From Acidobacteriota bacterium (GTDB taxonomy: Bacteria > Acidobacteriota > Thermoanaerobaculia > Gp7-AA8), in contig JAFATB010000011.1 in the NCBI GenBank assembly GCA_019244185.1, forward strand, positions 62,001 through 126,000: DNA of 64,000 bases, written 5' to 3'. Both the position numbers and the translations under genes were made by a program. Below the pieces are notes generated by a model. That model did not search any database. It was not told the origin of the DNA and worked only from the letters and a program-made list of their open reading frames with translations. Position 1 is the stretch's first letter; every line of letters begins with the position of its first letter. Of this stretch, positions 1 to 21,802 are shown piece after piece.

Positions 1-1
1 C

Positions 2-1947: not shown

Positions 1948-1951
<4 letters not shown>

Positions 1952-8100: not shown

Positions 8101-9473
8101 TTTGGCGCGCATTGCTGCGCGTCGACACGATCGGCGTCGACGACGACTTCTTCGAGCTCGGCGGCGACTCGCTGAAAACGATGCCGCTCGTCGTCCGCAT
8201 CCGCGAGCGCTTCGGCGTCTCGCTCCCGCTCGCCTCCATCTTCCAGTCGCCGACCGTCGCGCGCCTCGCGCAGCTCATCACCGGCGAGGCGAAGCTCGAA
8301 ACGATCTCGCTCGAGTCGCGCATCGGCGAGCCGATCGTGGCGGAGCCGGACGCGCTTCCCGCGACCTTCGCGCCGCCGCGCCACGTGCTGCTCACCGGCG
8401 CCACCGGCTTCCTCGGCGCGTTCCTGCTCCACGAACTGCTGCGCACGACGGATGCGGACATCGTCTGCCTCGTGCGCGCGAAGGACGACGCCGAAGGACG
8501 CGCGCGCATCGACAAGAACCTTGCCGCGTACGGATTGCGCGGCGATGCCTCGCGCATTCGCATCGTGCGCGGCGATCTCGCGCAGCCGCGGCTCGGCGTC
8601 GACGCCGACACGTGGGAACGCCTCGCGCGCGAGCTCGACGTCATCGTCCACAACGGCTCGACGGTCAGCTTCGTCACGCCGTACGAGAAGCTCGCCGCGG
8701 CGAACGTCGGCGGCACGCGCGAAGTGCTCCGTCTCGCGGGACGCGCGCGCATCAAGCCGGTGCACTTCGTCTCGACGCTCAGCGCGATCGACTTCGCGGC
8801 GGACGTCGTGAGCGACCGCGATCCGCTGCCGCCCGGCGAGCGCGTCGAAGGCGGCTACAACCAGAGCAAGTGGGTCGCGGACCGCATCGCCCAGGACGCG
8901 CGGGCGGGCGGTATTCCGGTGTCGATCCATCGCCCCGCGCGCGTCACCGGCGACAGCCGCACCGGCGCGTGGAACCACGCCGATCTTTTCCCGTCGTGGA
9001 TCAAGGCGTGCGTGCAGCTCGGTCTCATTCCGGAGAGTGATGCGGCGCTGAACATGACGCCGGTCGACTTCCTCGCCGCGGCGATCGTCCGGCTCGCGCT
9101 CGACCCGAACGCGCGGAACGGCACGTATCACTTCTTCAACAACCGCACGATGCCGCTCGCGCGCTTCGCCGACGCGTTGCGCGCGAAAGGCTTCGCGATC
9201 GAGAGCGTCCCCTACGCGACGTGGCGGCGCGCGCTCGTCGAGGCGATCGGCCGCGGCGACGACAACGCCCTCGCGCCGTTCATCGCGCTCTTTCCCGAGG
9301 AAGACGACAGCCGCGAGCCGCGCTTCGACACCGCGCACACCGACGACACGCTCGCCGCGCTCGGCCTCGTCTGTCCCGCCGCCGACGAGGCGCTCGTCTC
9401 CACGTACCTCGACTTCTTCATCGCGCGCGGGTTTCTGCCCGCGCCGCTTGCGGTCATCGGAGGCGAACGCTGA
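5181..9473 (+). CDS. Nonribosomal peptide synthetase, terminal module (C-A-PCP-thioester reductase)
   Basis: 1430 aa, GTG start overlapping the previous stop (GTGA), with GGAGG ten bases upstream. The condensation domain carries HHIIADAWS near residue 172, so the usual HHxxxDG glycine is alanine. Adenylation domain ~500-970 has YTSGSTGLPKG near 612 and YGPTEATVCAT; its code by eye is D-A-G-D-M-A-H-V-C-K, not assignable, though A-H-V recalls proline codes. The carrier serine is near 996 (LGGDSLK). From ~1065 a short-chain-dehydrogenase-type reductase follows: GATGFLG NAD(P)-binding loop, STLSAIDF and the YNQSK catalytic motif. Such domains release the thioester by NADPH reduction to an aldehyde or alcohol instead of hydrolysis. 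There is no thioesterase. It is the last NRPS gene of the operon. Confidence 0.95.
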   Translation: MTNEPLADRLARLTPQQRALLAQQLAARDKGVVRRADPRAPLPLAPAQLRMWFLEELQPGTGSYHVYNHYRLRGALDVDALERAVREIVRRHEMLRTSFHAEDGVPVQVVAENVELLIERVDLRGEADLDARAQRIVDDATFRPFDLARAPLMRVVLVTLRDDEHLLLLVLHHIIADAWSLDDVFGGELATLYNASAANEPSPLADVAVHFGDVVLWQQSAAQQARAQEHLRWWSDELRGLPDALDLPTDRPRPLAQSFRGARHRFALEKELLDALQELARRERVTLFMLLLAAFETLLHRWSGQDDFAVGTPVSTRTRPEMEPVLGLFINTVAIRASVAGDPTFRELLVRVRDRALDAFAHQDAPFERVVESLGLERSTSRSPVYQTMLVLWSGGNVARELAGITREWIEPEQRVSRFDMTLVAAAGDRGLDVLFDYATDLFDTRSIERFGRAFATLLRGIVRDPERRVSQLPLLDDAERAQVLRASRGETRTWPRTTLHQLFSEQAARTPEADAIVTPDRSVTYRELDMWSDAIASDVRGDIVAFHADRSADAIATLLGILKAGAAYLPIDPSTPAERRDWMLADAGAVLWNRDSDAPRQRRDANAAYLIYTSGSTGLPKGVLVEHASAVNLTLAFIELHGFAGHRVLVIPPLAFDASVGDVFPVLATGGALVLHPSPAQLGAAELAEFCSARGVTAIDAPAALWRRWSEEWVDIPALRMMMAGGESIPVEQVRRFARATRNRVRFFNHYGPTEATVCATLFATTDAADVQASELPIGLPIANVAAYVVDRNLEPVPDGVAGELCLGGAGVSRGYLGRREQTAERFVADPFSDVAGARMYRTGDVVRRQNDGTLLFLGRSDRQLKLRGFRIEPGEIEAAILAFGDIRGAFVTLREHRLVAYVVGSFDAAALRAFLQERLPEYMVPSAFVALDALPLTSNGKVDQRALPEPPVASDRAIVAPRNETEAALVDIWRALLRVDTIGVDDDFFELGGDSLKTMPLVVRIRERFGVSLPLASIFQSPTVARLAQLITGEAKLETISLESRIGEPIVAEPDALPATFAPPRHVLLTGATGFLGAFLLHELLRTTDADIVCLVRAKDDAEGRARIDKNLAAYGLRGDASRIRIVRGDLAQPRLGVDADTWERLARELDVIVHNGSTVSFVTPYEKLAAANVGGTREVLRLAGRARIKPVHFVSTLSAIDFAADVVSDRDPLPPGERVEGGYNQSKWVADRIAQDARAGGIPVSIHRPARVTGDSRTGAWNHADLFPSWIKACVQLGLIPESDAALNMTPVDFLAAAIVRLALDPNARNGTYHFFNNRTMPLARFADALRAKGFAIESVPYATWRRALVEAIGRGDDNALAPFIALFPEEDDSREPRFDTAHTDDTLAALGLVCPAADEALVSTYLDFFIARGFLPAPLAVIGGER

Positions 9474-10813
9474 TGGCTCTGAACGGCGCACGCGCATTTC
9501 TCGCCGTCTGGATCGGCCAGCTCGTCTCCGTCGTCGGCTCGCGTCTGTCGACGTTCGCGCTCGGCATCTGGGTGCTGCGCGAAACCGGTTCGACGACGAG
9601 CTACGCGTTCATCTTCGTATGCGCCGCCGTGCCCGCGCTGCTGCTCGTGCCGTTCGCCGGCGCGCTCGTCGATCGCTGGGACCGGCGCCGCGTGATGCTC
9701 GCGTGCGATGCGATCTGCGGCGCGACGATGCTCGTGCTCGCGGCGCTCCTCGCCACGCATCGCATCGCGCTGTGGCACATCTACGCCGGCGCCGCGGTGC
9801 AGGCATTCGCGAACGCGTTCCAGATGCCGGCGTACATGGCCAGCATCCCGCTGCTCGTTCCGAAGGAGCATCTCGCGCGCGCGAACGGCCTCGTGCAGAC
9901 GGCGTTCGCGACCTCGCTCATGCTCGGCCCCGCGCTGGCCGGCGTGCTGGTCACGCTCGTCGCGCTGCCGGGCGTGCTCGTCATCGACGGCGCGACTTTC
10001 TTCGCCGCGGTGATCGCGCTGACGCTCGTGCGCATCCCGCGTCCGCCGCGCGATCCGAACGAAGCGCCCGGCGCATTGCTGCACGAGGCGGCGGAAGGGT
10101 GGCGGTTCGTCCGCGATCGGCGTGGCCTCATCGGACTGCTCGCCATCTTCGGCACGACGAACTTTCTCTTCGGGATGCTCAGCATCCTCATCACCCCGCT
10201 CGTGCTCTCGTTCGCGAACGCCGCGCAGCTCGGCATGCAGATGTCGATCGGCGGCGCGGGACTCTTTCTCGGCGGCCTGGCCATGAGCACGTGGGGCGGT
10301 CCGAAGACGCGCATCCACGGCGTGCTCGCGTCGGTGATCGTCGCCGGCGTCTTTCTCGCGCTGCACGGCCTCTTGCCGTCGATCGCATTCGTCTCCGCGG
10401 CGGGCTTCTTCTTCTTCCTCACCGTTCCCGTGATGAACGCGTCGCAGGACGCGATCTGGCAGACCAAAGTCCCGGCCGAGCTGCAGGGCCGCTGCTTTGC
10501 GATCCAGCGCGTGCTGTCCGAGGCGGCGATGCCGGTGGGGTTTGTGCTCGCGGGACCGCTCGCGGATCGCGTGTTCGAGCCGCTGCTCGCGCCGCACGGC
10601 GCGCTCGCGTCGTCCATCGGCCGCGTCATCGGGACCGGCGCGGGTCGCGGCATCGCGCTGATGTTCATCGTCGCCGGCGTCGCCATAACGCTCGCCGGCA
10701 TCACCGGCTACTCCATCCGTCCGCTGCGTCGCGTCGAGCAGGAGCTCGATGACGCGCCGCTCGCGGACGACCGTTCTCTCGTTCAACCGTTGCAGCCTCT
10801 GGAGGAGTTATGA
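9473..10813 (+). CDS. MFS transporter (EntS-like MFS_3 family), probable product exporter
   Basis: 446 aa with about twelve hydrophobic segments. The N-terminal half, with WIGQLVSVVGSRLSTFALGIW and the loop DRWDRRRVM, is typical of the MFS_3/enterobactin-exporter group. The ATG at 9473 shares its A with the TGA of the reductase NRPS (TGATG), and GGAGG lies at 9459-9463, so the start is well supported and translation is likely coupled. In an NRPS operon such a carrier most likely exports the finished peptide and gives self-protection. This role is inferred from position; the family assignment is by sequence. Confidence 0.88.
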   Translation: MALNGARAFLAVWIGQLVSVVGSRLSTFALGIWVLRETGSTTSYAFIFVCAAVPALLLVPFAGALVDRWDRRRVMLACDAICGATMLVLAALLATHRIALWHIYAGAAVQAFANAFQMPAYMASIPLLVPKEHLARANGLVQTAFATSLMLGPALAGVLVTLVALPGVLVIDGATFFAAVIALTLVRIPRPPRDPNEAPGALLHEAAEGWRFVRDRRGLIGLLAIFGTTNFLFGMLSILITPLVLSFANAAQLGMQMSIGGAGLFLGGLAMSTWGGPKTRIHGVLASVIVAGVFLALHGLLPSIAFVSAAGFFFFLTVPVMNASQDAIWQTKVPAELQGRCFAIQRVLSEAAMPVGFVLAGPLADRVFEPLLAPHGALASSIGRVIGTGAGRGIALMFIVAGVAITLAGITGYSIRPLRRVEQELDDAPLADDRSLVQPLQPLEEL

Positions 10814-11538
10814 CCTGCCCGCACGCGAACGCGGCACCGAGCGCCACCACCGACGATCTCTACACCGCCTCCCAAGTCGAACGGCTCCTGGATCCGAGCC
10901 ATCCGCTTGCGCAGACGCTGGCTTGGGTGCGGCGCTTTCTCGCCAAGCCGAATCAGGAGCTCGGACGCCCCGGCGCCGTCTGTCCGTTCGTGCCGGGCGC
11001 GCTCGCACAGGACACGATCTGGCTGACGCTCGCGCCGCACACGCAGGCGCAGCGCAACGAGATCGTCGCCACCGTCGCGCGCTTCCGCGACCGCTTTCTC
11101 ACGCTCGATCCGAAAGACGGCGAAGACTCGATGAGCAAAGCGATCCTCATCGTCTTCCCGTATCTCACGTCCGCGGACGCGGGCCTCATCGACGACGTGC
11201 AGCTCGACCTGAAGCCGTCGTTCGTCGAGCACGGGATGATGCTCGGCGAGTTCCACGAGCGGAACGAGAGCCCCGGTCTGCGCAACCCGCAGTTCCGGCC
11301 GCTGCGCAGTCCCATTCCGATGCTCGCCATCCGCTACATGGTCGACTCCGATTTGCCGTTTCTGCATCGCTCGATTTACAACCCCGCGCTGCGCGCCGAT
11401 TTCATCCGCTCGTATCTGCGCCGCCTCGGCACGCGCGTCAGCCGCAACACGTTCGACGCGGCGGTCTCCGCGCTCGTCGCCGCCGAGATCGAGCAGCTCG
11501 ACGCCGTGAAGATCGTCGAGCTGATCATGACCCGCTGA
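10810..11538 (+). CDS. Unassigned conserved protein in NRPS operon (DUF6875-like)
   Basis: 242 aa, ATG overlapping the MFS stop by four bases (ATGA), with a strong GGAGGAG just upstream. It is soluble, with no signal peptide or membrane segment. Recognisable blocks are GRPGAVCPFVPGAL (~56-69), GMMLGEFHERN (~144) and FRPLRSPIPMLAIRYMV (~165-181). From memory these resemble the DUF6875 family, whose function I do not know. The cysteine in VCPF and the histidine in GEFHE are candidates for functional residues but no known catalytic motif is evident. Tight coupling to the exporter and the kynurenine monooxygenase implies a role in making or modifying the peptide. Confidence 0.8.
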   Translation: MTCPHANAAPSATTDDLYTASQVERLLDPSHPLAQTLAWVRRFLAKPNQELGRPGAVCPFVPGALAQDTIWLTLAPHTQAQRNEIVATVARFRDRFLTLDPKDGEDSMSKAILIVFPYLTSADAGLIDDVQLDLKPSFVEHGMMLGEFHERNESPGLRNPQFRPLRSPIPMLAIRYMVDSDLPFLHRSIYNPALRADFIRSYLRRLGTRVSRNTFDAAVSALVAAEIEQLDAVKIVELIMTR

Positions 11539-11546
11539 GGACCGCG

Positions 11547-12881
11547 ATGACGACGATGCAATCGCAGGAACATGTGGTGATCCTCGGCGGCGGACTGGCC
11601 GGCTCGCTCTTCGCGCTCTATCTCGCCCGCCGCGGCGCACGCGTCGATGTCTACGAACGCCGCGCCGATCCGCGCAAGCTCGGCGTGACGAAAGGCGGAC
11701 GCTCGATCAACCTCGGCCTCTCGAAACGCGGCATCACCTCGCTCGCCGAAGTCGGCTTGCGCGACGAAGTGCTCGCCACCGCCGTCGCCATGGAAGGGCG
11801 CGTCATTCACGATCTCGACGGCGCGCAACACTTTCAGCCGTACGGCAAGAACCGGCAGGAAGTGCTGCATTCGATCGACCGCAACGAGTTGAACGAGATC
11901 CTGCTCGATCGCGCCGAAGAGCATCCGAACGTCGCGCTGCACTTCGAGCATCGCTGCGTCGCCATCGATCACGCCACGCGCGAAGTCTCGATCGAGAAGC
12001 CCGGCGGCACGATCGAGCGTCTCCGCGCCGACTGGTTTCTCGGCGCCGACGGCGCGTTCTCGAAAGTGCGCGAGGAGATGCAGCGCGGCCTGCGCGCGAA
12101 CTACAGCCGCGAGTTTCTCGAATGGGGATACAAGGAGCTCACGCTCCCCGCGAATGCCGACGGCTCGTCGCAGCTGAAGCTCAACGCGCTGCACGTCTGG
12201 CCGCGCGGCCACTGCCTCATCGTCTCGCACGCGAACCGCAATGGCTCGCACACGCTCACGCTCTTCCTGCCGTTCGAAGGTCCGGACAGCTTCGAGCACA
12301 TCCACGGCCGCGCCGACATCGAGCGGTTGTTCCGCAAGTTCTTCCCCGATCTCGCGCCGTTGTTGCCGGACCTCTGCGACGAATGGGAGCGCCATCCGAC
12401 CGGCACGCTCGTCACGACCAAGACCGCGCCGTGGCATCTCGATGACTGGCTCGTGCTCGTCGGCGACGCCTGTCACGCGGTGTATCCGTTCTACGGACAA
12501 GGCATGAACTCCGCGTTCGAAGATTGCGCCGCGCTCTCGCGCGCGCTCGCGCAGCACGCCGATCGCGCGACCGCGTTCCGCGAATACGAGCGCTCGCGCA
12601 AGCCGCACACCGACACACTCGCGGAATTGTCGAAAGCGAACTTCGTCGAGCTGCGGCAGAAAGTCGCGTCGCCGCTGTTCCTGCTGCGCAAGCGGCTCGA
12701 CGTCTTTCTCAATCGATTGGCGCCCGAGGGATGGCTGCCGCTGTACACGATGATCGCGCATACGACGATTCCATACGGCGACGCGCTCGTACGCGCGCGC
12801 AAGCAGGATCGCGTGCTGCTCGCCGTCGCGACCACGGCGGCCGCGATCGCGGTGCTCGGCGCGGCGCTGCTCGTGCGCTAA
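11547..12881 (+). CDS. kmo: Kynurenine 3-monooxygenase-like FAD hydroxylase
   Basis: 444 aa. It has the FAD-binding GGGLAG (residues 14-19), the GADGAFSKVR motif and LVGDACHAVYPFYGQGMN, the last being characteristic of kynurenine 3-monooxygenase (KMO). Arg85 (GRVIH) and Tyr99 (QPYG) sit exactly where human KMO has its kynurenine-carboxylate-binding Arg85 and Tyr99, so kynurenine or a close analogue is a credible substrate. The C-terminus ends in a hydrophobic helix (LLAVATTAAAIAVLGAALLV), recalling the membrane anchor of eukaryotic KMO. ATG 11547 follows the previous stop by eight bases. No kynureninase or tryptophan dioxygenase is visible here, so the enzyme probably feeds 3-hydroxykynurenine or a derivative to the NRPS. 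It ends four bases from the convergent CHAT gene. Confidence 0.88.
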   Translation: MTTMQSQEHVVILGGGLAGSLFALYLARRGARVDVYERRADPRKLGVTKGGRSINLGLSKRGITSLAEVGLRDEVLATAVAMEGRVIHDLDGAQHFQPYGKNRQEVLHSIDRNELNEILLDRAEEHPNVALHFEHRCVAIDHATREVSIEKPGGTIERLRADWFLGADGAFSKVREEMQRGLRANYSREFLEWGYKELTLPANADGSSQLKLNALHVWPRGHCLIVSHANRNGSHTLTLFLPFEGPDSFEHIHGRADIERLFRKFFPDLAPLLPDLCDEWERHPTGTLVTTKTAPWHLDDWLVLVGDACHAVYPFYGQGMNSAFEDCAALSRALAQHADRATAFREYERSRKPHTDTLAELSKANFVELRQKVASPLFLLRKRLDVFLNRLAPEGWLPLYTMIAHTTIPYGDALVRARKQDRVLLAVATTAAAIAVLGAALLVR

Positions 12882-12885
12882 AACG

Positions 12886-15321
12886 CTACGAGCCCGCGTA
12901 CACGACGAACGTCGCCCAGTAGCGCGGCTGGCGGTAGATCGTCTGCGCGCGCTCGATCTCGAGCTTCGCGATGCGCAGCGCGGACGCGGGATCGCGGCCG
13001 CGATCGAGCTCGTCGTACATGCGGTTCATCAGCTGCGGTGTCGTCCGGTCGTCGACTTCCCACAGCGCGGCGATCACGTTCGACGCACCCGCGCGGAGAA
13101 ATGCCCACGCGAGGCCGACCAGACCTTCGCCGGTGAACGCGCGCGTGCCCGCGCCGTGGCAGCTCGAGATCGTGACGAGCCGCGCGTGCAGCGGCTGCAG
13201 CACGATGTCGCGTGCGAACAGCCGGTAGTGTTTCGTGGCGTCGTTGCCGAGGATGACGGAGGAATCGAGAGGACGCTTGCGCGTCGCCACGCCGTGCGCG
13301 ACGAAGTGCACGAACGCGAATCGTTCCGGCGACGCGCCGCGATACGCGGCCGGCGTCGCCTCGGGTCCCGCGAGCACTTTGCGGTGCGCGGGCGGGAAAT
13401 GCCGCGCGACGTTGTCGAGCTCCGCGCGCGCGAACTGCAGCGGCGGAAACTCGGGCGCGACCTGCGGCGGATTGCCGACGAGCAGCATCGACTTCGCGGA
13501 GTTCGCGGTTTGCGCGCGCGGGAGCAAGCGCAGCGAGCCGGCAGCGACGAGCGTGACGTCTTCGATCCAGTAATGCGGCGCCGGCTTCGGCGCGACGAGC
13601 GTCTCAAAGTTGAGCGCGTGCAGTTTGCCGTCCGCGATGACGATGACGCGCGCGCCGTTGCGCAGCGCGGCCGCGGCGGGTGGGACGAGCAGCGTGAAGA
13701 GGCGCTGCCCTGCATTGCCGCTCAGCTGCAGCGTGCCGCGCGCGCCGAGGAGGTTGCGGCGATACGTTTCGGCCGCGGTGTCGACGGTCGCATCGAGCGG
13801 CGCGACCGTCACGGCGTCCGGCGTCGCGCTCCACACCCACGAACGCTCGGTGCCGATCCAGTAGCTGACGAGCGTCGCGTTCTGCTGCCGTGCGACCGCA
13901 CGCGCGTCGAGCGGCGCGGATGCGCGCGCGTTGCCGAGACCTTCCTCGATCGTCCCGCGGCTCGTCTCCGTTACCGCTAGCGCATCGGCCGCGCGTCCGC
14001 TGCCGGCGAGATAGTCGACGTACGCGTCGAAGATCTCTTTCGATGGGTTGTAGAACGAGAGCCGCAGTTCGGGATCGGTCGTCGCCGCGCGCTGTTTGCG
14101 AATGAGCGCGAGCGCGCGGTCGAACGCCGCGACCGCGTCGCTGGCGCGTTTCGCGCGGCCGTAGGCTTCGCCGAGGCGGCCTTCCGCTTCCCAGCGCGTC
14201 CGCACGTCGGTGGCCGTCCCGAGCACCGACTGCAGCACGCGAACGGCGTCGTCGGTCTTGCCCTGCGCGGCGCTGATGCGCGCGTCGAGAATGCGCGAGC
14301 GCAGCTCGGCGTCGGCGGCGTGGTTCGTCTTCTTGATCGCGGTCGCGGCGCTGTTGAAGCGGCGCGCCTCGTCGTACTGCCCGCGGCGGATCGCGATCAC
14401 GGCGAGATTCGCGAGCGCGCTGCCGACGTCGTTCGCGTCCTTCGCGCCGTACGTCACGACGTCGCGGTAGAAGCGCTCGGCGGCAGCGAGATCGTGGCGC
14501 GCGTAGTAAATGTCGCCGAGGAGCACGAGCCAGGCGATGCGGCCGGCGCTGTGGGTGCGCGCGGCGATCGCTTCCGCGCGGACGAGCGGATCGATCGCGC
14601 TCTCATCGTCGCCGACTTCCCAGTACGCCCAGCCGACGTTTCCTTCCGCGCGCTCGAGCACCGACTGCAGATCGAGCTCGGTCGCGATGGCGCGCGCGCG
14701 TTCGCCCGTGGCGATGGCCTCGTTGTAGCGATGCGCGCCGACATACGCCTTCGTGAGATTCGCGAGCGCCTTCGCCTCGGTCACGCGATTGCCCGCTTTG
14801 CGCGCGAGCGTAATGGCGTCGAGCGTGTACGCCTCGGCGCGTTGCGGATGCGCCAGCGCGCGCATCAGCAGGACGTTCGGGACGAGCGCGGGCTGATGCT
14901 TCGTCGCGATCGCGTGCGCGGCGTCGATGAACTGCTCGGTCTCCGGCGACTGATGCGTCTGCGCGATGTACGCGAGCGCGATGAGCCGCCGCACCTCCGC
15001 TTCACTGGTGCGCCAGCGCGGCGGCGGCGGCTTCCTGAGAATCTTGTCCGCCGCCGCGGAATCGCCGGTCTGCATCAGTACTTCGCCGCGCATCACGCGC
15101 AGCGTCCACGCTGCTTCCGAATCGCTCGATGCAAAACGGCGCAGCGCATCGTCGACGATGCGCTGCGCCTGGGGGAGATGACCGCGGTCGAGCTCCGTCC
15201 GCGCCTGTTGCGCGGCGATGCGTTCCGCGTCGGGAACGGCCGGCGCTGCGAAGACCAACAGCAGCAGCGCCGGCGCGAGCCACGCGCGTCGTTCAGATGC
15301 GCGGCGGAATCGTGCTCCCAT
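12886..15321 (-). CDS. Exported TPR-CHAT caspase-like protease
   Basis: 811 aa from the ATG at 15321. The N-terminus has basic residues and a hydrophobic stretch (WLAPALLLLVFAAPAVP), a signal peptide or anchor. About residues 50-480 form helical repeats of TPR type (for example EGNVGWAYWEVGDDESAIDPL). The C-terminal third is a CHAT domain: catalytic dyad His676 (FVHFVAHG) and Cys721 (ISSCHGAG), then FTGEGLVGLAWAFLRAGA and ALWEVDD. CHAT proteins are clan CD cysteine peptidases related to separase and to the protease of CRISPR type III-E. The gene start overlaps the end of the preceding 291-aa gene by 29 bases, so it belongs to the sigma/anti-sigma operon. Confidence 0.92.
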   Translation of the reverse strand: MGARFRRASERRAWLAPALLLLVFAAPAVPDAERIAAQQARTELDRGHLPQAQRIVDDALRRFASSDSEAAWTLRVMRGEVLMQTGDSAAADKILRKPPPPRWRTSEAEVRRLIALAYIAQTHQSPETEQFIDAAHAIATKHQPALVPNVLLMRALAHPQRAEAYTLDAITLARKAGNRVTEAKALANLTKAYVGAHRYNEAIATGERARAIATELDLQSVLERAEGNVGWAYWEVGDDESAIDPLVRAEAIAARTHSAGRIAWLVLLGDIYYARHDLAAAERFYRDVVTYGAKDANDVGSALANLAVIAIRRGQYDEARRFNSAATAIKKTNHAADAELRSRILDARISAAQGKTDDAVRVLQSVLGTATDVRTRWEAEGRLGEAYGRAKRASDAVAAFDRALALIRKQRAATTDPELRLSFYNPSKEIFDAYVDYLAGSGRAADALAVTETSRGTIEEGLGNARASAPLDARAVARQQNATLVSYWIGTERSWVWSATPDAVTVAPLDATVDTAAETYRRNLLGARGTLQLSGNAGQRLFTLLVPPAAAALRNGARVIVIADGKLHALNFETLVAPKPAPHYWIEDVTLVAAGSLRLLPRAQTANSAKSMLLVGNPPQVAPEFPPLQFARAELDNVARHFPPAHRKVLAGPEATPAAYRGASPERFAFVHFVAHGVATRKRPLDSSVILGNDATKHYRLFARDIVLQPLHARLVTISSCHGAGTRAFTGEGLVGLAWAFLRAGASNVIAALWEVDDRTTPQLMNRMYDELDRGRDPASALRIAKLEIERAQTIYRQPRYWATFVVYAGS

Positions 15322-16168
15322 TGCCCTCCACGGATCCGCCCGTGAGCGAGCCGCCGCCGCCACCACCCGTCCCGCCGTCCTGCAGAACCAGCGGCATGAA
15401 TGCTTTGGCGACCGGCGCGGCATCGGGCGCCGCCGCGGGCGGGGCGGCGAAGCGCTCGTCGAAGTCGATGCGCACAAGGCTGACGCGGCGGCGTCCCGGT
15501 TTGAACAGGAACTCCGCGAGATTCACGCTGCCGAAATCGGGCACCAGAATGCGGTGGCCGGTGATGGCGATGCTCGTCTGCGCTTTGAGCTTGCCCGCCG
15601 GCGAGAGCGACTTGACCAGCGTGCCGGAGATCGCGGGGCGCGTCTGGCTCTTGAGCGCCTTGGTGAGCGCCGGCGCGGTCCCGTACCCGAAGCGTTTCGC
15701 GAAGTCGGCCGGCGCGGCGGAAAGACGGCGGCGGAAGTCGTCGTACGTCGAGCAGCCGAGCAGATCGAGGTCGAGCTCGGGGACGACCTCGTGGTCGTCG
15801 ATCGACAGCCCGCGATACGACGCGCGGAACTCGAACCGCGAGTCGTCTTCGTGGATGTTGCGGATCGACGTCATCGACGCCTGCATCATGCCCACTTTCA
15901 GGCGGCCGCGCACGGCGAAGTTGCTGATCAGCACATCGACGTACGTCGCGTACGTGCCGGCGGCGATCTTCTGGCCCACCACGCGGCTCTCCGCCTTCGT
16001 AAACGAGACGCCGTGACGGTTGTAATTCGTTTCCTCGGAAAATCCCTCGCCGCCCGTGGGCGCGAGAGCGACGGATGCGAGACTCGGGATGGCGGTCGCC
16101 GTGCTGCCGTTGGTGAGCAGGCCGCCGACACCGATCGCGCTGGCGTTGAACGTGAAGTCGTAGGACAT
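15293..16168 (-). CDS. Unknown protein with glycine-rich C-terminal tail, CHAT operon
   Basis: 291 aa with no recognised domain. There is no signal peptide: it starts MSYDFTFNASAIGVGG. The body is predicted beta-rich with conserved-looking blocks (RNIHEDDSRFEFRASYRG, LDLLGCSTYDDF, ITGHRILVPDFGSVNLAEF). The last ~45 residues are Ala/Pro then Gly/Ser rich (GGTGGGGGGSLTGGS), likely flexible. An AGGAGG-type ribosome site precedes ATG 16168. It lies between the anti-sigma factor and the CHAT protease and overlaps the latter by 29 bases in another frame, implying translational coupling. A substrate, chaperone or partner of the protease is possible; nothing in the sequence proves it. Confidence 0.85.
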   Translation of the reverse strand: MSYDFTFNASAIGVGGLLTNGSTATAIPSLASVALAPTGGEGFSEETNYNRHGVSFTKAESRVVGQKIAAGTYATYVDVLISNFAVRGRLKVGMMQASMTSIRNIHEDDSRFEFRASYRGLSIDDHEVVPELDLDLLGCSTYDDFRRRLSAAPADFAKRFGYGTAPALTKALKSQTRPAISGTLVKSLSPAGKLKAQTSIAITGHRILVPDFGSVNLAEFLFKPGRRRVSLVRIDFDERFAAPPAAAPDAAPVAKAFMPLVLQDGGTGGGGGGSLTGGSVEGNGSTIPPRI

Positions 16169-16230
16169 GGTTCCTCCTCTGGACGCCCGGAATGGGCGGG
16201 CGCTCTGCTTCCTCGAACCCTGTACTTCGT

Positions 16231-16884
16231 TTAAGGAACTACGCGGAACGGATAGCTGGTGATCTTCGAGCGGTTGCCGTCCTCGCGGACGCCCTCGATC
16301 ACCAATTCATAGCTGCCGGCCGGCAACGATCCGGGCAGCAATGAAAACGGGTTGTTCGCCTGTTCGGGCGACTTCTCGACCGGCTCGCCGATCGTCGCGC
16401 CGCGCGCGTCGACGGCGTGCAAGATGTACTTCACGAACGACGGATCGGTGGGGATGTCGAAGGGAAGCTGTTCCATCGCTCCCTTCCGCACCGCCGGCAC
16501 GTCGGACGCGCCGCGCGTTCCCGCGCTGAGCGACTTGCCCGCGTCGGCGATGACGAGCCGCGGCGGCGCGCTGCGCAGAACGAGCGGAACGGCGTTCGCC
16601 GCGAGCAGCACCGCGGCCGCGGCGGCGGGAATCCACTGCTTGATGCCGCGGCGCCGCGCGCGGAGGTCGACGACGTTGTCGCGTTGCGGCACCGCGCGCG
16701 CGTCGCGTTCGCCGCGCACGAGCTCGCGTCCGCTCTCCATCATCCGCAGTCCGTCGCGAACATCGTCCGCGCAAACGCGGCAGTCGAAGAAGTGCTGCTC
16801 GAACTCTTCGCTTTCGGAGTCGTGCATCTCGCGGAGGAGGTAGCGTTCCGCGGCCTGGCCGGCGATGGCGTCGTCGTGATTCAT
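16231..16884 (-). CDS. Membrane anti-sigma factor with zinc finger (zf-HC2/ZAS)
   Basis: 217 aa. Residues ~12-50 carry the zinc-binding anti-sigma motif H-x3-C-x2-C (QHFFDCRVCADD), the cytoplasmic part that binds an ECF sigma factor. A single membrane segment lies near 80-102 (WIPAAAAAVLLAANAVPLVL). The C-terminal ~110 residues would be outside the inner membrane and end in a beta-rich domain (GSYELVIEGVREDGNRSKITSYPFRVVP). ATG 16884 overlaps the sigma-factor stop by four bases, the usual arrangement of a sigma/anti-sigma pair. The outer domain may sense the signal and might be reached by the exported CHAT protease encoded downstream; that link is inference. Confidence 0.9.
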   Translation of the reverse strand: MNHDDAIAGQAAERYLLREMHDSESEEFEQHFFDCRVCADDVRDGLRMMESGRELVRGERDARAVPQRDNVVDLRARRRGIKQWIPAAAAAVLLAANAVPLVLRSAPPRLVIADAGKSLSAGTRGASDVPAVRKGAMEQLPFDIPTDPSFVKYILHAVDARGATIGEPVEKSPEQANNPFSLLPGSLPAGSYELVIEGVREDGNRSKITSYPFRVVP

Positions 16885-17498
16885 TCTCGTCTCTGGCTGG
16901 ATAGTGACGGATCGGCGCCAAACGTTTCACGAATCTCGCGGCGCCCGCTCTCGCGGCGCAGATATTCGGCGCGGAAGCGATCTTTGGCGCGGTGCAGCAG
17001 GACGCGCAGATAGCCGCGGTCGATGTCGAAACGGCGGCAGATCTCGTCCTTGTCGCTGTCGTCGAGAAAGACGGCGCGCAGGATGTCGGAGTCGCGCGGG
17101 TTGTGCGCCTCGAGCGCCGCGAGGACGCGCTTGACGCGCGCGCTGCTCATGCGGCGATCCTGCTCCTCCTCCAGCGCCGCCGAGCTCGCCGGCTCGTCGC
17201 GGGCGGGCTCGAGCGGCTCGGTCCGCGACTCGCCGCGCCAGTACTCCATCACCACGTGGTTGCAGACGCCGATGACGAATGCCCCGAGCTTGCGGCCGTC
17301 GCGGAGATCGCCCAGCTTGTCGAGGACGCGCACGAAGATTTCCTGGCGGATCTCGTCGATGGCCTGCATCGAGTGCACGCGCCTCCGCAGCGTGAGGAGC
17401 AGCAACTCGCGAAAGTACTCATAGAAATGAGCTTCCGTTTCGCGGTCTCTCTCTCGCAGACGCCGCACATAGTCGTCGTCGAACGCGAAAAGTTCCAT
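16881..17498 (-). CDS. ECF-type RNA polymerase sigma factor
   Basis: 205 aa. Region 2 is visible at ~25-90 (RRRVHSMQAIDEIRQEIFVRVLDKL, then LGAFVIGVCNHVVMEYWR). Region 4 at ~140-185 has a helix-turn-helix (DKDEICRRFDIDRGYLRVLLHRAKDRFR). An acidic spacer links them (EPARDEPASSAALEEEQ). It is first in a four-gene operon with its zinc-finger anti-sigma factor, an unknown protein and a TPR-CHAT protease. ATG 17498 is preceded by GGGGAG-like sequence in about 70 bases of leader. Its targets cannot be read from this window. Confidence 0.93.
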   Translation of the reverse strand: MELFAFDDDYVRRLRERDRETEAHFYEYFRELLLLTLRRRVHSMQAIDEIRQEIFVRVLDKLGDLRDGRKLGAFVIGVCNHVVMEYWRGESRTEPLEPARDEPASSAALEEEQDRRMSSARVKRVLAALEAHNPRDSDILRAVFLDDSDKDEICRRFDIDRGYLRVLLHRAKDRFRAEYLRRESGRREIRETFGADPSLSSQRRE

Positions 17499-17567
17499 GG
17501 GGAGTTACTTGTACTTTACTGCAAATCCGGCCAAACGGAGCGGCGGAAGGACGGCCGGGCGGCCGAT

Positions 17568-18005
17568 TCAGGCCGGCTGGAGACGCAGCAGGATCTGGCG
17601 GATCGCGGCGTGACCGATGGCCACGTCGACGTCGCGCTGCAGCAGCGTGAGGTAGCGATTGGCCTCGCCCGATTCCGTGTCGATCGCCGCGTTGACGCGC
17701 GCGACGATGGCGTCGACGTCGGCGCGCTCGAAGTCGGTGCGCGACATCGAGTCGATGTCGACGATGAGCGTCGTCATCGGCCGCAGCCACTCGAAGAACG
17801 GGTCTTCCTGCAGCAGCTTCAACAGATGCGTCGGCCCCGACACCGGCGCGACGTTCGCCGAGTACTCCGCGCTCGCCGCGTCGATCAGCGCGCGATGCAG
17901 CGGCATGAGCTGCTTCCACAGATCGCGCAGCGCCGCGCGCAGCTCGGCCCGCTGCGGATCGTCCGGCGTGTGCATCGTGCGCGCGTAGATGTCTTCTTTC
18001 TTCAT
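17568..18005 (-). CDS. Conserved hypothetical soluble protein
   Basis: 145 aa, predicted almost wholly helical, no signal peptide and no known motif. Distinct stretches are LRDLWKQLMPLHRALIDAASAEYS (~27-50), HLLKLLQEDPFFEWLRPMTTLIVDID (~59-84) and NRYLTLLQRDVDVAIGHAAIRQILLRLQ near the end. The composition and length are those of a compact helical bundle. The leader contains two inverted repeats (18025-18067 and 18081-18119), so it may be regulated post-transcriptionally or by a dimeric repressor. It is on the same strand as the ECF operon but separated by 69 bases, so co-transcription is possible. Confidence 0.75.
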   Translation of the reverse strand: MKKEDIYARTMHTPDDPQRAELRAALRDLWKQLMPLHRALIDAASAEYSANVAPVSGPTHLLKLLQEDPFFEWLRPMTTLIVDIDSMSRTDFERADVDAIVARVNAAIDTESGEANRYLTLLQRDVDVAIGHAAIRQILLRLQPA

Positions 18006-18024
18006 CGGGGAAAATCACGCCTCC

Positions 18025-18067
18025 ACGGTTGGCTGGGGAAGGGTGGGGTAGGCAGTTAGCCAACCGT
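18025..18067 (-). promoter_or_regulatory. 10-bp perfect inverted repeat in leader of the 145-aa gene
   Basis: ACGGTTGGCT (18025-18034) is exactly mirrored by AGCCAACCGT (18058-18067) across a 23-base G-rich spacer. On the minus strand this lies about 20 bases before the ATG at 18005, in the presumed 5' leader. It could be an RNA hairpin controlling translation or a split operator. No T-tract follows, so it is not a typical terminator. Confidence 0.6.
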
Positions 18068-18080
18068 AGAGGCCGTGAAA

Positions 18081-18119
18081 GCTTGCTGCAGCTCCAGGAA
18101 CTGCAAGTCTACAGCAAGT
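18081..18119. promoter_or_regulatory. Nested inverted repeats, candidate operator or cruciform
   Basis: The inner element 18087-18105 reads TGCAGCTCCAGGAACTGCA, palindromic except for one symmetric mismatch pair and its centre. It is framed by GCTTGCTG (18081-18088) and CAGCAAGT (18112-18119), which pair at seven of eight positions. It lies between the 145-aa gene leader and the tRNA-Arg promoter, and could serve either side. Confidence 0.5.
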
Positions 18120-18153
18120 AGTGCACCGGGCAACAGGCTGCAATTCGGCGCGC

Positions 18154-18182
18154 TTGCGGACCTCCGGCGAGGTGACTACAAT
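18154..18182 (+). promoter_or_regulatory. Sigma-70-type promoter of tRNA-Arg
   Basis: TTGCGG (18154-18159), a 17-base spacer and TACAAT (18177-18182), about 53 bases before the mature tRNA start. The same TACAATGCG string recurs before the HicA-like gene (33389) and RNase G (41524), supporting it as this organism's -10 plus discriminator. Confidence 0.6.
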
Positions 18183-18235
18183 GCGCCGCCGCCCCGGAAT
18201 GAAGACTCCGGTGGTGCGGTTAAGCTTCCGTGCTC

Positions 18236-18312
18236 GCACCCATAGCTCAATTGGATAGAGCATCTGACTACGGATCAGAAGGTTTGAGGTTCGAGTCCTC
18301 ATGGGTGCACCA
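18236..18312 (+). tRNA. tRNA-Arg (anticodon ACG)
   Basis: 77 nt with encoded CCA. The acceptor stem GCACCCA pairs with TGGGTGC, the anticodon stem TCTGA pairs with TCAGA around the loop CTACGGA, and the T-loop is TTCGAGT. Anticodon ACG requires A-to-I editing at position 34 to read CGU, CGC and CGA codons. The editing enzyme gene tadA follows 55 bases downstream. Confidence 0.97.
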
Positions 18313-18327
18313 ACCCTGAATCAACTC

Positions 18328-18360
18328 CGACGGCGGGCCGATGCCCGCCGTCGTATTCTT
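18328..18360 (+). terminator. Hairpin terminator after tRNA-Arg
   Basis: CGACGGCGGG (18328-18337) and CCCGCCGTCG (18344-18353) form a perfect 10-bp stem with loop CCGATG, followed by TATTCTT. This is a good Rho-independent terminator shape, although it ends only seven bases before the tadA start codon. Confidence 0.75.
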
Positions 18361-18366
18361 TGACAA

Positions 18367-18861
18367 ATGGATCAGGCGCAGTGGCAGTCCGAGGCGCTTG
18401 CAGAAGCGATGAACGTCGCCTTCGCGCTCGCCGAGGATGCGGCGCGCGATGGTGAGATCCCGGTGGGAGCGGTCGTCGTCGACCGCAACGGCGCGATCGT
18501 CGGACGCGGACGCAACGCGCGTGAGTCGGGCGACCCGCTCGGACACGCGGAGCTGTTCGCGATTCGCGAGGCCGCGCGGTCCATCGGCGACTGGCGGCTC
18601 GAAGGCACGACGATGTGCGTGACGCTCGAGCCGTGCGCGATGTGCGCGGGCGCGCTCGTGAACGCGCGCGTCGCACGGCTCGTCTTCGCGGCGTACGACC
18701 CGAAAGCGGGCTTCTGCGGCTCGCTCGGAAATCTCGTGCAGGACGCCCGCCTCAATCATCGGCTGATGGTCGAAGGCGGTTTCATGGAAGAACGCTCGCG
18801 GCAGTTGCTGCAGCAGTTCTTCCGCGAACTGCGCCAGCGGAATCAGAAGTTGCCTGCGTGA
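18367..18861 (+). CDS. tadA: tRNA-specific adenosine deaminase TadA
   Basis: 164 aa. It deaminates adenosine 34 of tRNA-Arg(ACG) to inosine. The zinc-binding and catalytic residues are clear: His60-Ala-Glu62 (GHAELFAIREAA) and Cys90/Cys93 (TLEPCAMCAGAL). The length matches the bacterial family. ATG 18367 lies seven bases after the terminator hairpin of tRNA-Arg(ACG), so enzyme and sole known bacterial tRNA substrate are neighbours. Guanine deaminases share the fold, but PCAMCAGA with RVARLVFAAYDPKAG is the TadA signature. Confidence 0.95.
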   Translation: MDQAQWQSEALAEAMNVAFALAEDAARDGEIPVGAVVVDRNGAIVGRGRNARESGDPLGHAELFAIREAARSIGDWRLEGTTMCVTLEPCAMCAGALVNARVARLVFAAYDPKAGFCGSLGNLVQDARLNHRLMVEGGFMEERSRQLLQQFFRELRQRNQKLPA

Positions 18862-18867
18862 TGAAAC

Positions 18868-18957
18868 GGAGAGGTGGCAGAGCGGTTGAATGCGGCGGTC
18901 TCGAAAACCGTTATACCTTCACGGGTATCGAGGGTTCGAATCCCTCCCTCTCCGCCA
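18868..18957 (+). tRNA. tRNA-Ser (anticodon CGA)
   Basis: 90 nt including CCA, with acceptor GGAGAGG / CCTCTCC and a long variable arm as in class II tRNAs. Anticodon loop CTCGAAA within stem GCGGT/ACCGT gives anticodon CGA, reading UCG. It begins six bases after the tadA stop. Confidence 0.96.
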
Positions 18958-18974
18958 CCCGGCCCGGCCGGGTG
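18956..18974 (+). terminator. GC-rich hairpin after tRNA-Ser(CGA)
   Basis: CACCCGGCC and GGCCGGGTG flank a single central C; a realistic fold is a 6-bp stem with a GC loop. It starts in the CCA end of the tRNA. No T-tract follows, so termination is uncertain; it may help 3' processing. Confidence 0.4.
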
Positions 18975-19035
18975 CGCTAAGGGCATAGCCCAGCTGCACG
19001 TGCGGCTGCAGCTCGAGGACACGCGGCGCAGGCGG
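18974..19035 (+). repeat. Dispersed intergenic element, copy A
   Basis: A 62-bp stretch sharing the layout GCGCT-AGGGC-TAGCC-TGCACGTGCGGCTGC-CTCGAG-GCAGGCGG with 33306-33368. The 15-mer TGCACGTGCGGCTGC is identical in both copies. It lies between two tRNA-Ser genes, directly behind a GC hairpin. It is non-coding and of unknown type. Confidence 0.65.
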
Positions 19036-19057
19036 TTAGCAGCGACGACCGAGATGC

Positions 19058-19147
19058 GGAGAGATGGCCGAGTGGCTTAAGGCGCACGCTTGGAAAGCGT
19101 GTGTACGTTAACCCGTACCGTGGGTTCGAATCCCACTCTCTCCGCCA
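19058..19147 (+). tRNA. tRNA-Ser (anticodon GGA)
   Basis: 90 nt with CCA. Acceptor GGAGAGA pairs with TCTCTCC; anticodon loop TTGGAAA gives anticodon GGA for UCC and UCU. The long variable arm (GTACGTTAACCCGTAC) is typical of tRNA-Ser. It is the second serine tRNA in a cluster of two. Confidence 0.96.
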
Positions 19148-19182
19148 CCATTGACGCGCATGATCCATTGATATTGTTCGAC

Positions 19183-19308
19183 GGCCCGCTGGGATGAGCC
19201 CGGGTCCTGTGCAGCAGGCGCACCGAACCTCGTCAGGTCCGGAAGGAAGCAGCGATAAGGTGCCTCACCTGCGTGACACAGTCCGGCCTGGGCTCTTCCG
19301 AGCGGGTC
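19183..19308 (+). ncRNA. ffs: Signal recognition particle RNA (4.5S-like)
   Basis: About 126 nt. The universally conserved domain IV is present as GTCAGGTCCGGAAGGAAGC with the following AGC. The ends pair (GGCCCGCT with AGCGGGTC), closing the long hairpin that sets the limits given. This RNA binds Ffh and targets membrane proteins co-translationally. It stands directly before dnaX, a frequent bacterial arrangement. A weak promoter (TTGACG at 19151, TATTGT at 19172, spacer only 15) may drive it, or it is read through from tRNA-Ser. Confidence 0.95.
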
Positions 19309-19336
19309 ATTTCGTTTCAGGTACACTCCACCCGCA

Positions 19337-20911
19337 ATGTCCTACCAGGCTCTCGCGCGGAAATATCGCCCCCAAACCTTTCAGGACATCGTCGGCCAGG
19401 AAACGGCCGTGCGGACGCTGCGCAATGCCATCGAGGACGAGCGCATCCATCACGCGTACCTCTTCTCCGGCGTCCGCGGCGTCGGCAAAACGACCCTCGC
19501 GCGCATCCTCGCCAAGGCGCTGAACTGCGAGCACGGACCGACGCGGGATCCCGACAACACGTGCACGATCTGCCGCGAGATCACCGAAGGCATCGACCTC
19601 GACGTCCGGGAGATCGATGCCGCGACGTACACCGGCGTCGACAACGTCCGGGAGCTCCGCGACGTCTCGCAGTTCCAGCCCGCGCGCGACCACTACCGCA
19701 TCTTCATCATCGACGAAGCGCACATGCTCTCCACCGCGTCGTGGAACGCATTGCTCAAGCTCATCGAGGAGCCGCCGCCGCACGTCGTCTTCATGTTCGC
19801 GACGACGGAGATGCAGAAGGTTCCCACCACGATCATCTCCCGCACGCAGAAGATCCTGTTGCGCAAGATCAACCTCGACGATCTGATCAAACGCCTCGCC
19901 GACGTCTGCCGCATGGAAGGCATCGAAGCCACGCGTCCCGCGCTCGAGATCATCGCCCGCCGCGGCGAAGGCAGCGTGCGCGACTCGCTCTCGCTGCTCG
20001 ACCAGATCATCGCCTTCAGCGGACGCTCCATCGACGTCGAGGACGTCGCCACGGTCCTCGGCCTCTCCGACACGAACTTCTTCGCGCGCGTCATCACCGA
20101 GATCGCCGACGGCGATCATGCGGCGATTCTCGAGGCGCTGCAGGAGGCTGCCGACACCGGCCGCGATTTCAAGATGCTGTATCGCGACCTCCTCAACTTC
20201 GTGCGCAACCTCATGCTCATCGCCGGCGGCGCGAACGAGTCGATGCTCTCCGTGCAGCCGGAAGATCTGCCGACGCTGCAGAAGGTCGCGGAAAAGTTCT
20301 CGTACAGCGATCTGCTGCGCATCGCGAACCTCCTCCTGCGCGACGACGAGACCGTGAATCGCGCCGAGCATCAGCGCCTCGCCGTCGAGATCGCACTGCT
20401 CAAAGCGGCAACGTTCCCGCGCCTCAAAGCCGTGGAACAGGTGCTCGCCAGCGACACGTCGACCGCGACCGCTTCGCCCGCCGCCCCGCGCGTGCGCGCC
20501 GTCGAGAAGCCGGCGCAGCGTCCCGCCGCCGCTGCGAACACGACGACGTCCGCCGCCAGCGTCGACACCGGCTCCGCCGACGCGTTTCTCGAGCGCGCGA
20601 AGAAAGCGCGTCCGCTCCTCGGCGGGTATCTCACCGGCGCGAAGCACGCGGCGAAAGAGGGCAATCGCATCACGCTGACCTTCGACGACCCGCACCTCGC
20701 CGAGCCGCTCGCCGATGAACGCGCGGCCCTCGAGAAGATCGCGGCCGAGGTGTATGGAGCGCCGACGCAGGTCATCATTGAGACCCACAACGACGAGAAG
20801 CCCGGCGGTCGACGCGCCGAAGACAAGCCGTCTCCGCTGCGCGACGATCCCGTGCTCAGCTCGTTCCGCAAGCACCTCGGCGGCGAGCTGCTGAAGGAGA
20901 GCAAACGATGA
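19337..20911 (+). CDS. dnaX: DNA polymerase III subunits gamma/tau
   Basis: 524 aa. This is the AAA+ clamp-loader motor of the replicative polymerase. Walker A is GVRGVGKTT (Lys51), the zinc-binding cysteines include Cys64, Cys76 and Cys79, and the Walker B/DEAH segment is IIDEAHMLS. Sensor 1 (TTIISRTQ) and the collar region follow. After ~375 an Ala/Pro/Thr-rich linker leads to a C-terminal tau-like domain (~405-490). I see no obvious slippery run for a programmed gamma frameshift. It follows the SRP RNA by 28 bases and overlaps ybaB by ATGA. Confidence 0.96.
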
Positions 20912-21204
20912 ACATCAAACAGCTGATGAAACAAGCGCAGCAGATGCAGGACCAGATGCAGCGCCAGATGTCTTCGATCAAGGTCGAAGGCACGGCCGGC
21001 GGCGGCATGGTCAAGGCGACGATGTCGGGCAACAAGGAACTGCTCGAGCTGACGATCGACAAGGAAGCGGTCGATCCCGACGACGTCGAGATGCTGCAGG
21101 ACCTCGTCAAAGCCGCGATCAACGAAGCCGCGCGCAAGGTCGACGAGGAGATGAACTCGTCCCTCGGCGCTATGACCGGCGGGATGAAGATTCCGGGTTT
21201 CTGA
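20908..21204 (+). CDS. ybaB: YbaB/EbfC family nucleoid-associated protein
   Basis: 98 aa, ATG overlapping the dnaX stop (ATGA). The N-terminal amphipathic helix is rich in Gln and Met ([15 protein letters not shown]), followed by the family core [18 protein letters not shown] and [20 protein letters not shown]. These small dimers bind DNA with low specificity. The dnaX-ybaB-recR order is widely conserved in bacteria and supports the call. Confidence 0.95.
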
Positions 21205-21208
21205 TCAC

Positions 21209-21802
21209 TTGACTGCACCGCCTCTCGCAAACCTCATCAACGAGCTGACCAAGCTCCCCGGCGTCGGCGGCAAATCGGCGGCGCGGCTCGCGTATCACAT
21301 CCTCAAACGCTCGGCCGCGGAAGCCGAGGCGCTGGCGACGGCGATTCTGGATGTGAAGACGAAGATCTTCCGCTGCTCGGTCTGCAACAACATGACGGAC
21401 GTGGAGCCGTGCGCGATCTGCGCGGATCCGCGCCGCGATCCGTCGCTCATCTGCGTCGTCGAGGAAGCCTTCAACATCCAGACGATCGAGTCGACGCGCG
21501 ACTTCAAAGGCGTCTATCACGTGCTCCTCGGCGCGCTCTCGCCGCTGAAAGGCATCGGTCCGCAGGACATCGATGTAGCCGGGCTCGTGAAACGCGTGCA
21601 GAGCGGGGAGCTGCGCGAGATCATCATCGCCACGAACCCGAACGTCGAAGGGGAGGCGACCGCGCTCTACATCGCGCAGCAGCTTCGCCCGCTGGGCGTG
21701 CGCACGACGCGGCTCGCGTTCGGCTTACCGGTGGGCGGCGACCTCGAATACGCGGACCAGGTGACGATGGCCAAAGCACTCGAAGGGCGTCGCGAGATCT
21801 GA
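21209..21802 (+). CDS. recR: Recombination protein RecR
   Basis: 197 aa, the usual length, from a TTG start at 21209 four bases after the ybaB stop. It has the helix-hairpin-helix [15 protein letters not shown], a four-cysteine zinc finger ([16 protein letters not shown]), and a Toprim domain ([14 protein letters not shown], then [15 protein letters not shown]). RecR works with RecO and RecF (recF is present at 48940) to load RecA on gapped DNA. Last gene of the dnaX-ybaB-recR unit. Confidence 0.96.

What the first reader, a model, noticed from the sequence alone, without database searches (positions are those of the whole stretch)
12886..17498. Sigma / anti-sigma / unknown / TPR-CHAT protease operon: a possible protease-gated transcription switch
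Seen: an ECF sigma factor, its zinc-finger membrane anti-sigma factor (ATGA overlap), a 291-aa unknown protein and an exported TPR-CHAT protease (His676, Cys721) are in one run on the minus strand. Known: in type III-E CRISPR a TPR-CHAT protease cleaves Csx30, which releases an RpoE-type sigma factor. Here no CRISPR parts exist, but protease and sigma control are again linked. Inference: the CHAT protein may cleave the anti-sigma outer domain or the unknown protein and so set sigma activity.
Basis: partly seen in the sequence, partly recalled or inferred. Interest (0 to 1): 0.82.

Follow-up and report, generated by a model that had tools for sequence, protein, structure and literature searches.

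The report
Protease-linked sigma factor operon in Acidobacteriota
Soil bacteria of the phylum Acidobacteriota carry a conserved set of four genes in which an exported caspase-like protease sits next to a gene switch (sigma factor) and its membrane lock (anti-sigma factor); the lock has a strongly conserved Arg-Gly spot in a floppy stretch outside the membrane, which the protease may cut to turn the switch on.

Summary
On the minus strand, 17498-12886, lie an ECF sigma factor, a zinc-finger membrane anti-sigma factor, a 291-aa unknown protein and an exported TPR-CHAT protease (His676, Cys721). The unknown family occurs in 25 of 396 genomes sampled from the phylum, always near a CHAT gene where the neighbourhood could be read, usually in the order sigma, anti-sigma, unknown, CHAT. 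Its CHAT partners form one clade (100/98 support) with no unknown-lacking member among 48 others. So this is an inherited module. The unknown protein is a leaderless relative of NCBIfam 'choice-of-anchor P' (13 of 21 members match) with a confident beta-meander model and no solved fold.

For mechanism, the data favour the anti-sigma over the unknown as CHAT substrate. CHAT and the anti-sigma ectodomain share the exported side; the unknown protein lacks a signal peptide. A [S/T/A]-R-[G/S] motif lies in the disordered juxtamembrane linker (R124, 18 of 20) and is among the most conserved positions in 58 related anti-sigmas. This ectodomain co-occurs with CHAT: 68 of 69 genomes, and the exception lacks the motif. 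Cleavage is untested, and some anti-sigmas without an adjacent CHAT carry the motif. It is not a CRISPR Craspase.

The parts
16881..17498 (-). ECF-type sigma factor, 205 aa
   Evidence: Pfam Sigma70_r2 above cut-off; orthologues match regions 2 and 4; adjacent orthologue in most relatives
16231..16884 (-). membrane anti-sigma factor, 217 aa: zinc-binding H31-x3-C35-x2-C38 domain (1-62), TM 81-102, disordered linker 103-130, Ig-like ectodomain 131-217
   Evidence: AF2 model; zf-HC2 in 18 of 19 orthologues; Ig/FnIII/CopC-like ectodomain, weak Foldseek hits only; ATGA overlap with the sigma gene
16507..16518 (-). codons 123-126 (T-R-G-A) of the anti-sigma factor: conserved [S/T/A]-R-[G/S] linker motif, candidate CHAT cleavage site
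   Evidence: R 18/20 (17 aligned plus L061, shifted by the aligner), G/S 20/20 in the four-gene set; R 53/58, plus two shifted by the aligner, in the wider family; R124 lies in the pLDDT<50 segment 122-124
15293..16168 (-). 291-aa leaderless beta protein, relative of NCBIfam choice-of-anchor P
   Evidence: 13/21 family members match NF040603, best 4.2e-10; L013 member 39.6 bits against cut-off 27; AF2 pLDDT 85.7, no PDB or viral fold match at E<=0.001
12886..15321 (-). exported TPR-CHAT protease, 811 aa, catalytic His676 and Cys721
   Evidence: Pfam CHAT 2e-51; H and C invariant in 22/22; signal sequence here, lipobox-like N-terminus in most orthologues; clade shared with all other unknown-linked CHATs

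Best explanation
This is an inherited four-gene signalling module. The sigma factor is held by the zinc-finger domain of the membrane anti-sigma factor. The TPR-CHAT protein is exported (usually as a lipoprotein) and probably acts as the site-1 protease. When its TPR part receives a signal, the CHAT domain cuts the anti-sigma factor in its disordered outer linker, most likely at the conserved Arg124-Gly125, and sheds the Ig-like ectodomain. The remaining stub is then removed by general proteases and the sigma factor is freed. The 291-aa protein is a dedicated partner of this one CHAT clade; lacking a signal peptide, it is more likely a cytoplasmic regulator or output of the module than the protease's substrate. 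Shown: gene order, conservation, domain make-up, catalytic residues, CHAT signal sequences, the motif and its co-occurrence with CHAT. Inferred: cleavage, the exact site, the signal, later proteolysis, and the role of the 291-aa protein.
For: Co-inheritance: unknown family in 25/396 phylum genomes, with CHAT in every locus that can be read and with sigma and anti-sigma in most. The unknown-linked CHATs form one clade, 100/98, with no unknown-lacking CHAT inside it among 48 others. Compartment: CHATs carry signal sequences and the anti-sigma ectodomain is outside the membrane. Motif: [S/T/A]-R-[G/S], R 18/20 and G/S 20/20; R 53/58 in the wider family; R124 lies in a segment with pLDDT<50. Association: anti-sigmas with this ectodomain have a CHAT within 5 kb in 27/38 cases against 5/26 (p=9e-5). 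At genome level 68/69 have CHAT against 249/396 overall (p=1e-14), and the one exception, G362, lacks the Arg-Gly. In 14 of 15 anti-sigmas from genomes without a detected CHAT, neither ectodomain nor motif is seen. Catalytic His and Cys are invariant. Precedent: CHAT cleavage of Csx30 relieves inhibition of a sigma factor (PMC10028731).
Against: No cleavage data. Anti-sigmas of families f51/f56 with another Ig-type ectodomain carry an Arg-Gly with no CHAT within 5 kb, although those genomes do encode CHAT elsewhere, so the motif could be structural or serve another protease. One genome without a detected CHAT (G393, a fragmented assembly) also has it (L161). Three of the 58 aligned anti-sigmas lack the Arg (L056, L059, L147) although each has a CHAT within 5 kb. 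Craspase CHATs cut at non-conserved residues (A|S, L|D, M|K; PMC11106740), so a fixed Arg is not required by this fold. Genome size and shared ancestry inflate the association p-values. L013 and L015 keep unknown, CHAT and anti-sigma without an adjacent sigma gene.
Confidence: 0.48

Rival explanations
1. CHAT and the 291-aa protein are outputs of the sigma factor, not its regulators: the sigma and anti-sigma pair senses envelope stress by another site-1 protease and switches on a protease effector with its partner. The Arg-Gly motif is then structural or a site for that other protease.
For: Arg-Gly also occurs in anti-sigmas without an adjacent CHAT. The 291-aa protein and CHAT co-vary most tightly: L060 keeps only these two, and in L013/L015 no sigma gene is adjacent.
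Against: Many CHAT genes without the 291-aa protein are still next to a sigma and anti-sigma pair with this ectodomain. By eye, the region upstream of the sigma gene resembles a housekeeping -10 rather than an ECF autoregulated promoter, which gives no sign that the sigma drives the operon.
Confidence: 0.27
2. CHAT cleaves the 291-aa protein, as Csx29 cleaves Csx30 or caspases cleave gasdermins, and a fragment acts on the sigma system or on the membrane.
For: Strict one-to-one evolution of the two genes and overlapping reading frames; conserved C-terminal N-G-x-x-x-P end.
Against: No signal peptide in any of 23 members, whereas CHAT is exported. The model is compact and has no conserved disordered loop. 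No gasdermin-like or other solved fold match.
Confidence: 0.15
3. The genes are neighbours by chance or hitchhiking and have no joint function.
For: The module is patchy: 25 of 396 genomes.
Against: The same set recurs in many families of the phylum, and the loss of one part usually means loss of all.
Confidence: 0.03

Closest known systems
Type III-E CRISPR Craspase (Csx29 TPR-CHAT, Csx30, Csx31, CASP-sigma/RpoE)
   Same: A TPR-CHAT protease is genetically linked to an ECF-type sigma factor and its inhibitor; Csx29 is the best, but weak, PDB match of the CHAT domain.
   Different: No Cas7-11 or CRISPR parts found nearby; the protease is exported; the inhibitor is a membrane zinc-finger anti-sigma; fails the Csx29 profile (17.1 bits against 300); the 291-aa protein matches no family and its relatives match choice-of-anchor P.
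RseA/DegS/RseP and RsiW-type regulated proteolysis of anti-sigma factors
   Same: Single-pass membrane anti-sigma with an outer domain; predicted site-1 cut on the outer side.
   Different: The proposed site-1 protease is a caspase/separase-fold CHAT protein encoded in the operon, not a PDZ serine protease.
ECF54 sigma factors with CHAT, subtilase or carboxypeptidase genes in their context (PMC8999054)
   Same: ECF sigma with a CHAT protein in the neighbourhood, proteolytic control proposed.
   Different: That proposal is for sigma factors without an anti-sigma factor; here a zinc-finger membrane anti-sigma is the neighbour of the sigma gene.
Choice-of-anchor P family (NCBIfam NF040603)
   Same: 13 of 21 relatives of the 291-aa protein match (best 4.2e-10); one exceeds the curated cut-off.
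   Different: No signal peptide in any member, and no recognisable anchor; a conserved C-terminal N-G-x-x-x-P end instead.

Membership tests
CHAT peptidase family (PF12770) | CHAT domain over curated cut-off with catalytic His and Cys | tested here: met
   175.6 bits against 24; H676 and C721 in 22/22 orthologues that reach the columns
CHAT peptidase family (PF12770) | Proteolytic activity | not testable with these tools
   needs purified protein
Type III-E Craspase (Csx29) | Match to the Csx29 profile NF041237 over its cut-off | tested here: not met
   17.1 bits against 300
Type III-E Craspase (Csx29) | CRISPR array and Cas7-11 nearby | tested here: not met
   no CRISPR-like direct repeats in 9000-22000; no CRISPR RNA in Rfam scan of the window; neighbouring genes at 5181-12881 are NRPS, MFS, DUF6875 and FAD monooxygenase
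ECF sigma with zinc-finger (ZAS) anti-sigma | Sigma regions 2 and 4; anti-sigma H-x3-C-x2-C plus TM | tested here: met
   (region 4 of the window protein itself is below cut-off, orthologues match)
ECF54 group | CHAT in context and no anti-sigma factor | tested here: not met
   anti-sigma present; ECF group models were not available, so group assignment itself was not tested
Choice-of-anchor P (NF040603) | Profile match over cut-off | tested here: inconclusive
   window protein: no match; relative L013 39.6 bits against 27, L053 27.0, others below
Choice-of-anchor P (NF040603) | Signal peptide (and C-terminal anchor) of a surface protein | tested here: not met
   no N-terminal hydrophobic segment with a signal-peptide pattern in 23 members; anchor judged by eye only
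Bacterial gasdermin next to a CHAT/caspase protease | Gasdermin fold | tested here: not met
   AF2 model with pLDDT 85.7; no PDB match at E<=0.001 and no gasdermin among listed hits

The most novel reading that the evidence does not exclude
Exported CHAT (separase/caspase-fold) proteins are the dedicated site-1 proteases of a large Acidobacteriota class of ECF anti-sigma factors that share an Ig-like ectodomain with an [S/T/A]-R-[G/S] cut site, and one clade has added a leaderless choice-of-anchor P relative as an obligatory partner that gates or carries out the response. This would be CRISPR-free, envelope-facing caspase-type control of transcription, and a possible source from which CRISPR Craspase sigma control was built.
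Probability: 0.33. Interest if true: 0.82.

Novelty: new variant of a known kind. Interest (0 to 1): 0.62.

Why it matters
If CHAT cuts the anti-sigma at the conserved Arg-Gly, a caspase/separase-type protease would take the place of DegS-type site-1 proteases in a phylum with many unexplained CHAT genes (10 in this genome), and the link between CHAT proteases and sigma factors known from CRISPR Craspase would appear as one case of a wider pattern. It gives a single-residue, testable prediction and a first candidate substrate for these exported CHAT proteins. It also defines a protein family with a confident predicted structure that matches no solved fold.

Tried and rejected
(1) CRISPR membership: Csx29 profile and repeat search negative. 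(2) Gasdermin-like or porin-like fold for the 291-aa protein: Foldseek PDB and viral searches gave nothing at E<=0.001. (3) Known defence system: PADLOC gives only a weak TPR hit. (4) tblastn of the L013 relative of the 291-aa protein against plasmids: no match. (6) An S1-pocket argument for Arg specificity from separase: the phmmer alignment is too weak (E about 1) and the separase pocket residue is known to me only from memory, so I do not use it. (7) An ECF autoregulation motif upstream of the sigma gene: by eye none seen; a -10-like element (GCAGTAAAGT, TGTAAACT, TGCTATACT) recurs instead (not tested statistically).
Full report
OBSERVATION. The sigma gene (17498-16881) and the anti-sigma gene (16884-16231) overlap by ATGA. 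The unknown gene starts 62 nt later (16168-15293). The CHAT gene most likely starts at 15321, with a Shine-Dalgarno-like GGAGGGC in front and a 29-nt overlap with the unknown gene. Pfam gives sigma region 2 above cut-off and CHAT at 2e-51 with TPR repeats. zf-HC2 is weak in the window protein but matches 18 of 19 orthologues, and all 19 full-length orthologues keep H-x3-C-x2-C. The window lies in the phylum Acidobacteriota: loci of the same module were fetched with organism names from Edaphobacter lichenicola and Granulicella.

CO-OCCURRENCE. The 291-aa protein was searched as a single sequence and then as a profile in 396 genomes of the phylum: 25 have it. I fetched the surroundings of nearly all of them and annotated them with profiles built here. 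The usual order is sigma, anti-sigma, unknown, CHAT. Exceptions: L013 and L015 have unknown, CHAT, anti-sigma and no adjacent sigma; L016 is cut by a contig end, with the sigma and the first half of an anti-sigma at the end of another contig of the same genome (L102); L062 has the unknown gene divergent from sigma, anti-sigma and CHAT; L060 has unknown and CHAT only; L063 is a contig fragment with unknown and CHAT. In a CHAT-domain tree of 55 sequences all 22 unknown-linked CHATs form one group (support 100/98). After adding CHATs from genomes of the Edaphobacter/Granulicella family without the unknown gene, they are still exclusive among 70. In those genomes the CHAT genes lack adjacent sigma and anti-sigma genes of this type. 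So the unknown gene joined one CHAT lineage once and has stayed with it in every case sampled.

THE UNKNOWN PROTEIN. No library hit for the window protein itself, but 13 of 21 relatives match NCBIfam choice-of-anchor P, best 4.2e-10, one above the curated cut-off (L013, 39.6 bits against 27). AlphaFold2 with the 21-row alignment gives pLDDT 85.7 and a long antiparallel beta meander. Foldseek finds no PDB or viral match at E<=0.001. The conserved C-terminal end is N-G-x-x-x-P. I see no signal peptide in any member, which sets it apart from secreted choice-of-anchor proteins (that those are secreted is my own knowledge) and puts it, by default, in a different compartment from CHAT.

THE PROTEASE. 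Most CHAT orthologues begin with a signal sequence followed by a lipobox-like Cys (for example L014 GFAAC, L021 VAAC, L051 AVGC, L056 ITGC); the window, L012, L055, L057 and L058 have a hydrophobic signal without it. The lipobox call is by eye and pattern. His676 and Cys721 are invariant. The only CHAT-type PDB relatives found by sequence are Csx29 and separase, both weak.

THE ANTI-SIGMA. AlphaFold2 shows a helical zinc domain, a TM helix at 81-102, a low-confidence linker and an Ig-like domain at 131-217, which resembles Ig, FnIII and CopC folds weakly. In the linker, [S/T/A]-R-[G/S] is conserved: R in 18 of 20 (17 aligned plus L061, shifted by the aligner) and G or S next in 20 of 20. In 58 anti-sigmas with this ectodomain, with or without the unknown gene nearby, that Arg is at least as conserved as any other column (53, plus L062 and L105 shifted by the aligner), while the linker around it varies in length and sequence. 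R124 lies in the segment of lowest model confidence (122-124). A conserved dipeptide in a disordered linker is what a processing site looks like, but it is not proof.

CONTROLS. Near genes: anti-sigmas with this ectodomain have a CHAT within 5 kb in 27 of 38 cases, those without it in 5 of 26 (p 9e-5). Genomes: 68 of 69 with the ectodomain have CHAT, against 249 of 396 overall (p 1e-14); genome size and shared descent inflate this. The exception, G362, has the ectodomain without the Arg-Gly and without a recognisable sigma-binding domain. In 15 anti-sigmas from genomes without a detected CHAT, 14 show neither the ectodomain nor the motif; L161 (from a 90%-complete assembly) has an Arg-Gly. Against this, families f51/f56 carry V-R-G in another Ig-type ectodomain with no CHAT close by, though each of those genomes encodes CHAT elsewhere. 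So the motif is tied to CHAT at genome level but is not restricted to CHAT operons. The genome-level search scored only the top candidates per genome, so absences are less certain than presences.

MECHANISM. My preferred model is regulated proteolysis with CHAT as site-1 protease on the anti-sigma linker, and the unknown protein as a dedicated cytoplasmic partner. The steps that are inferred are named in Best explanation. The main rival is that CHAT and the unknown protein are outputs.

KNOWN OR NEW. CHAT control of a sigma factor is known for Craspase, where Csx29 cuts Csx30 and relieves inhibition of CASP-sigma (PMC10028731), at sites that differ between orthologues (PMC11106740). CHAT in the context of ECF54 sigma factors without an anti-sigma has been noted (PMC8999054). 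Full-text searches for CHAT domain with anti-sigma found only the Craspase paper, within an open-access library that is incomplete. The combination here (membrane zinc-finger anti-sigma with Arg-Gly linker, exported CHAT, leaderless choice-of-anchor P relative) was not found described. I rate it a new variant of a known kind.

Noticed in passing
window 1-12881 (+): Nonribosomal peptide synthetase genes ending in a condensation, adenylation, carrier and terminal NAD-binding reductase protein (5181-9473), followed by an MFS exporter, a DUF6875 protein (10810-11538) and a FAD monooxygenase (ends 12881): probably a peptide aldehyde or alcohol cluster, ending 4 nt from the CHAT stop.
   Followed up: partly
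G000:C4:109500-124000 (L109) and G000:C4:727000-740500 (L174): The same genome has ten CHAT genes; at least two more sit back to back with a sigma and anti-sigma pair of the Arg-Gly type (G-E-R-G), without the 291-aa protein.
   Followed up: partly
L114-L116, L119-L122, L125, L127, L128, L130, L131, L133, L161: Another anti-sigma ectodomain class (V-R-G-x-x-I-T-L-I-S-P ... Y-S-W-Q-V-K-A-F) with the same Arg-Gly and no adjacent CHAT; several of these genomes hold a CHAT pair (+ and - strand) about 35-90 kb away on the same contig.
   Followed up: partly
upstream of the sigma gene, window 17499-17530 (-), and L012, L051, L053, L055, L058: A recurring -10-like element (GCAGTAAAGT, TGTAAACT, TGCTATACT) close to the sigma start suggests a housekeeping promoter and a short leader (seen by eye only).
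   Followed up: no
G051, G063, G368: Some relatives have very many CHAT candidates in the first look (46 to 66 per genome), unexplained.
   Followed up: no
window 19198-19296 (+): Bacterial small SRP RNA between a tRNA-Ser gene and dnaX.
   Followed up: no
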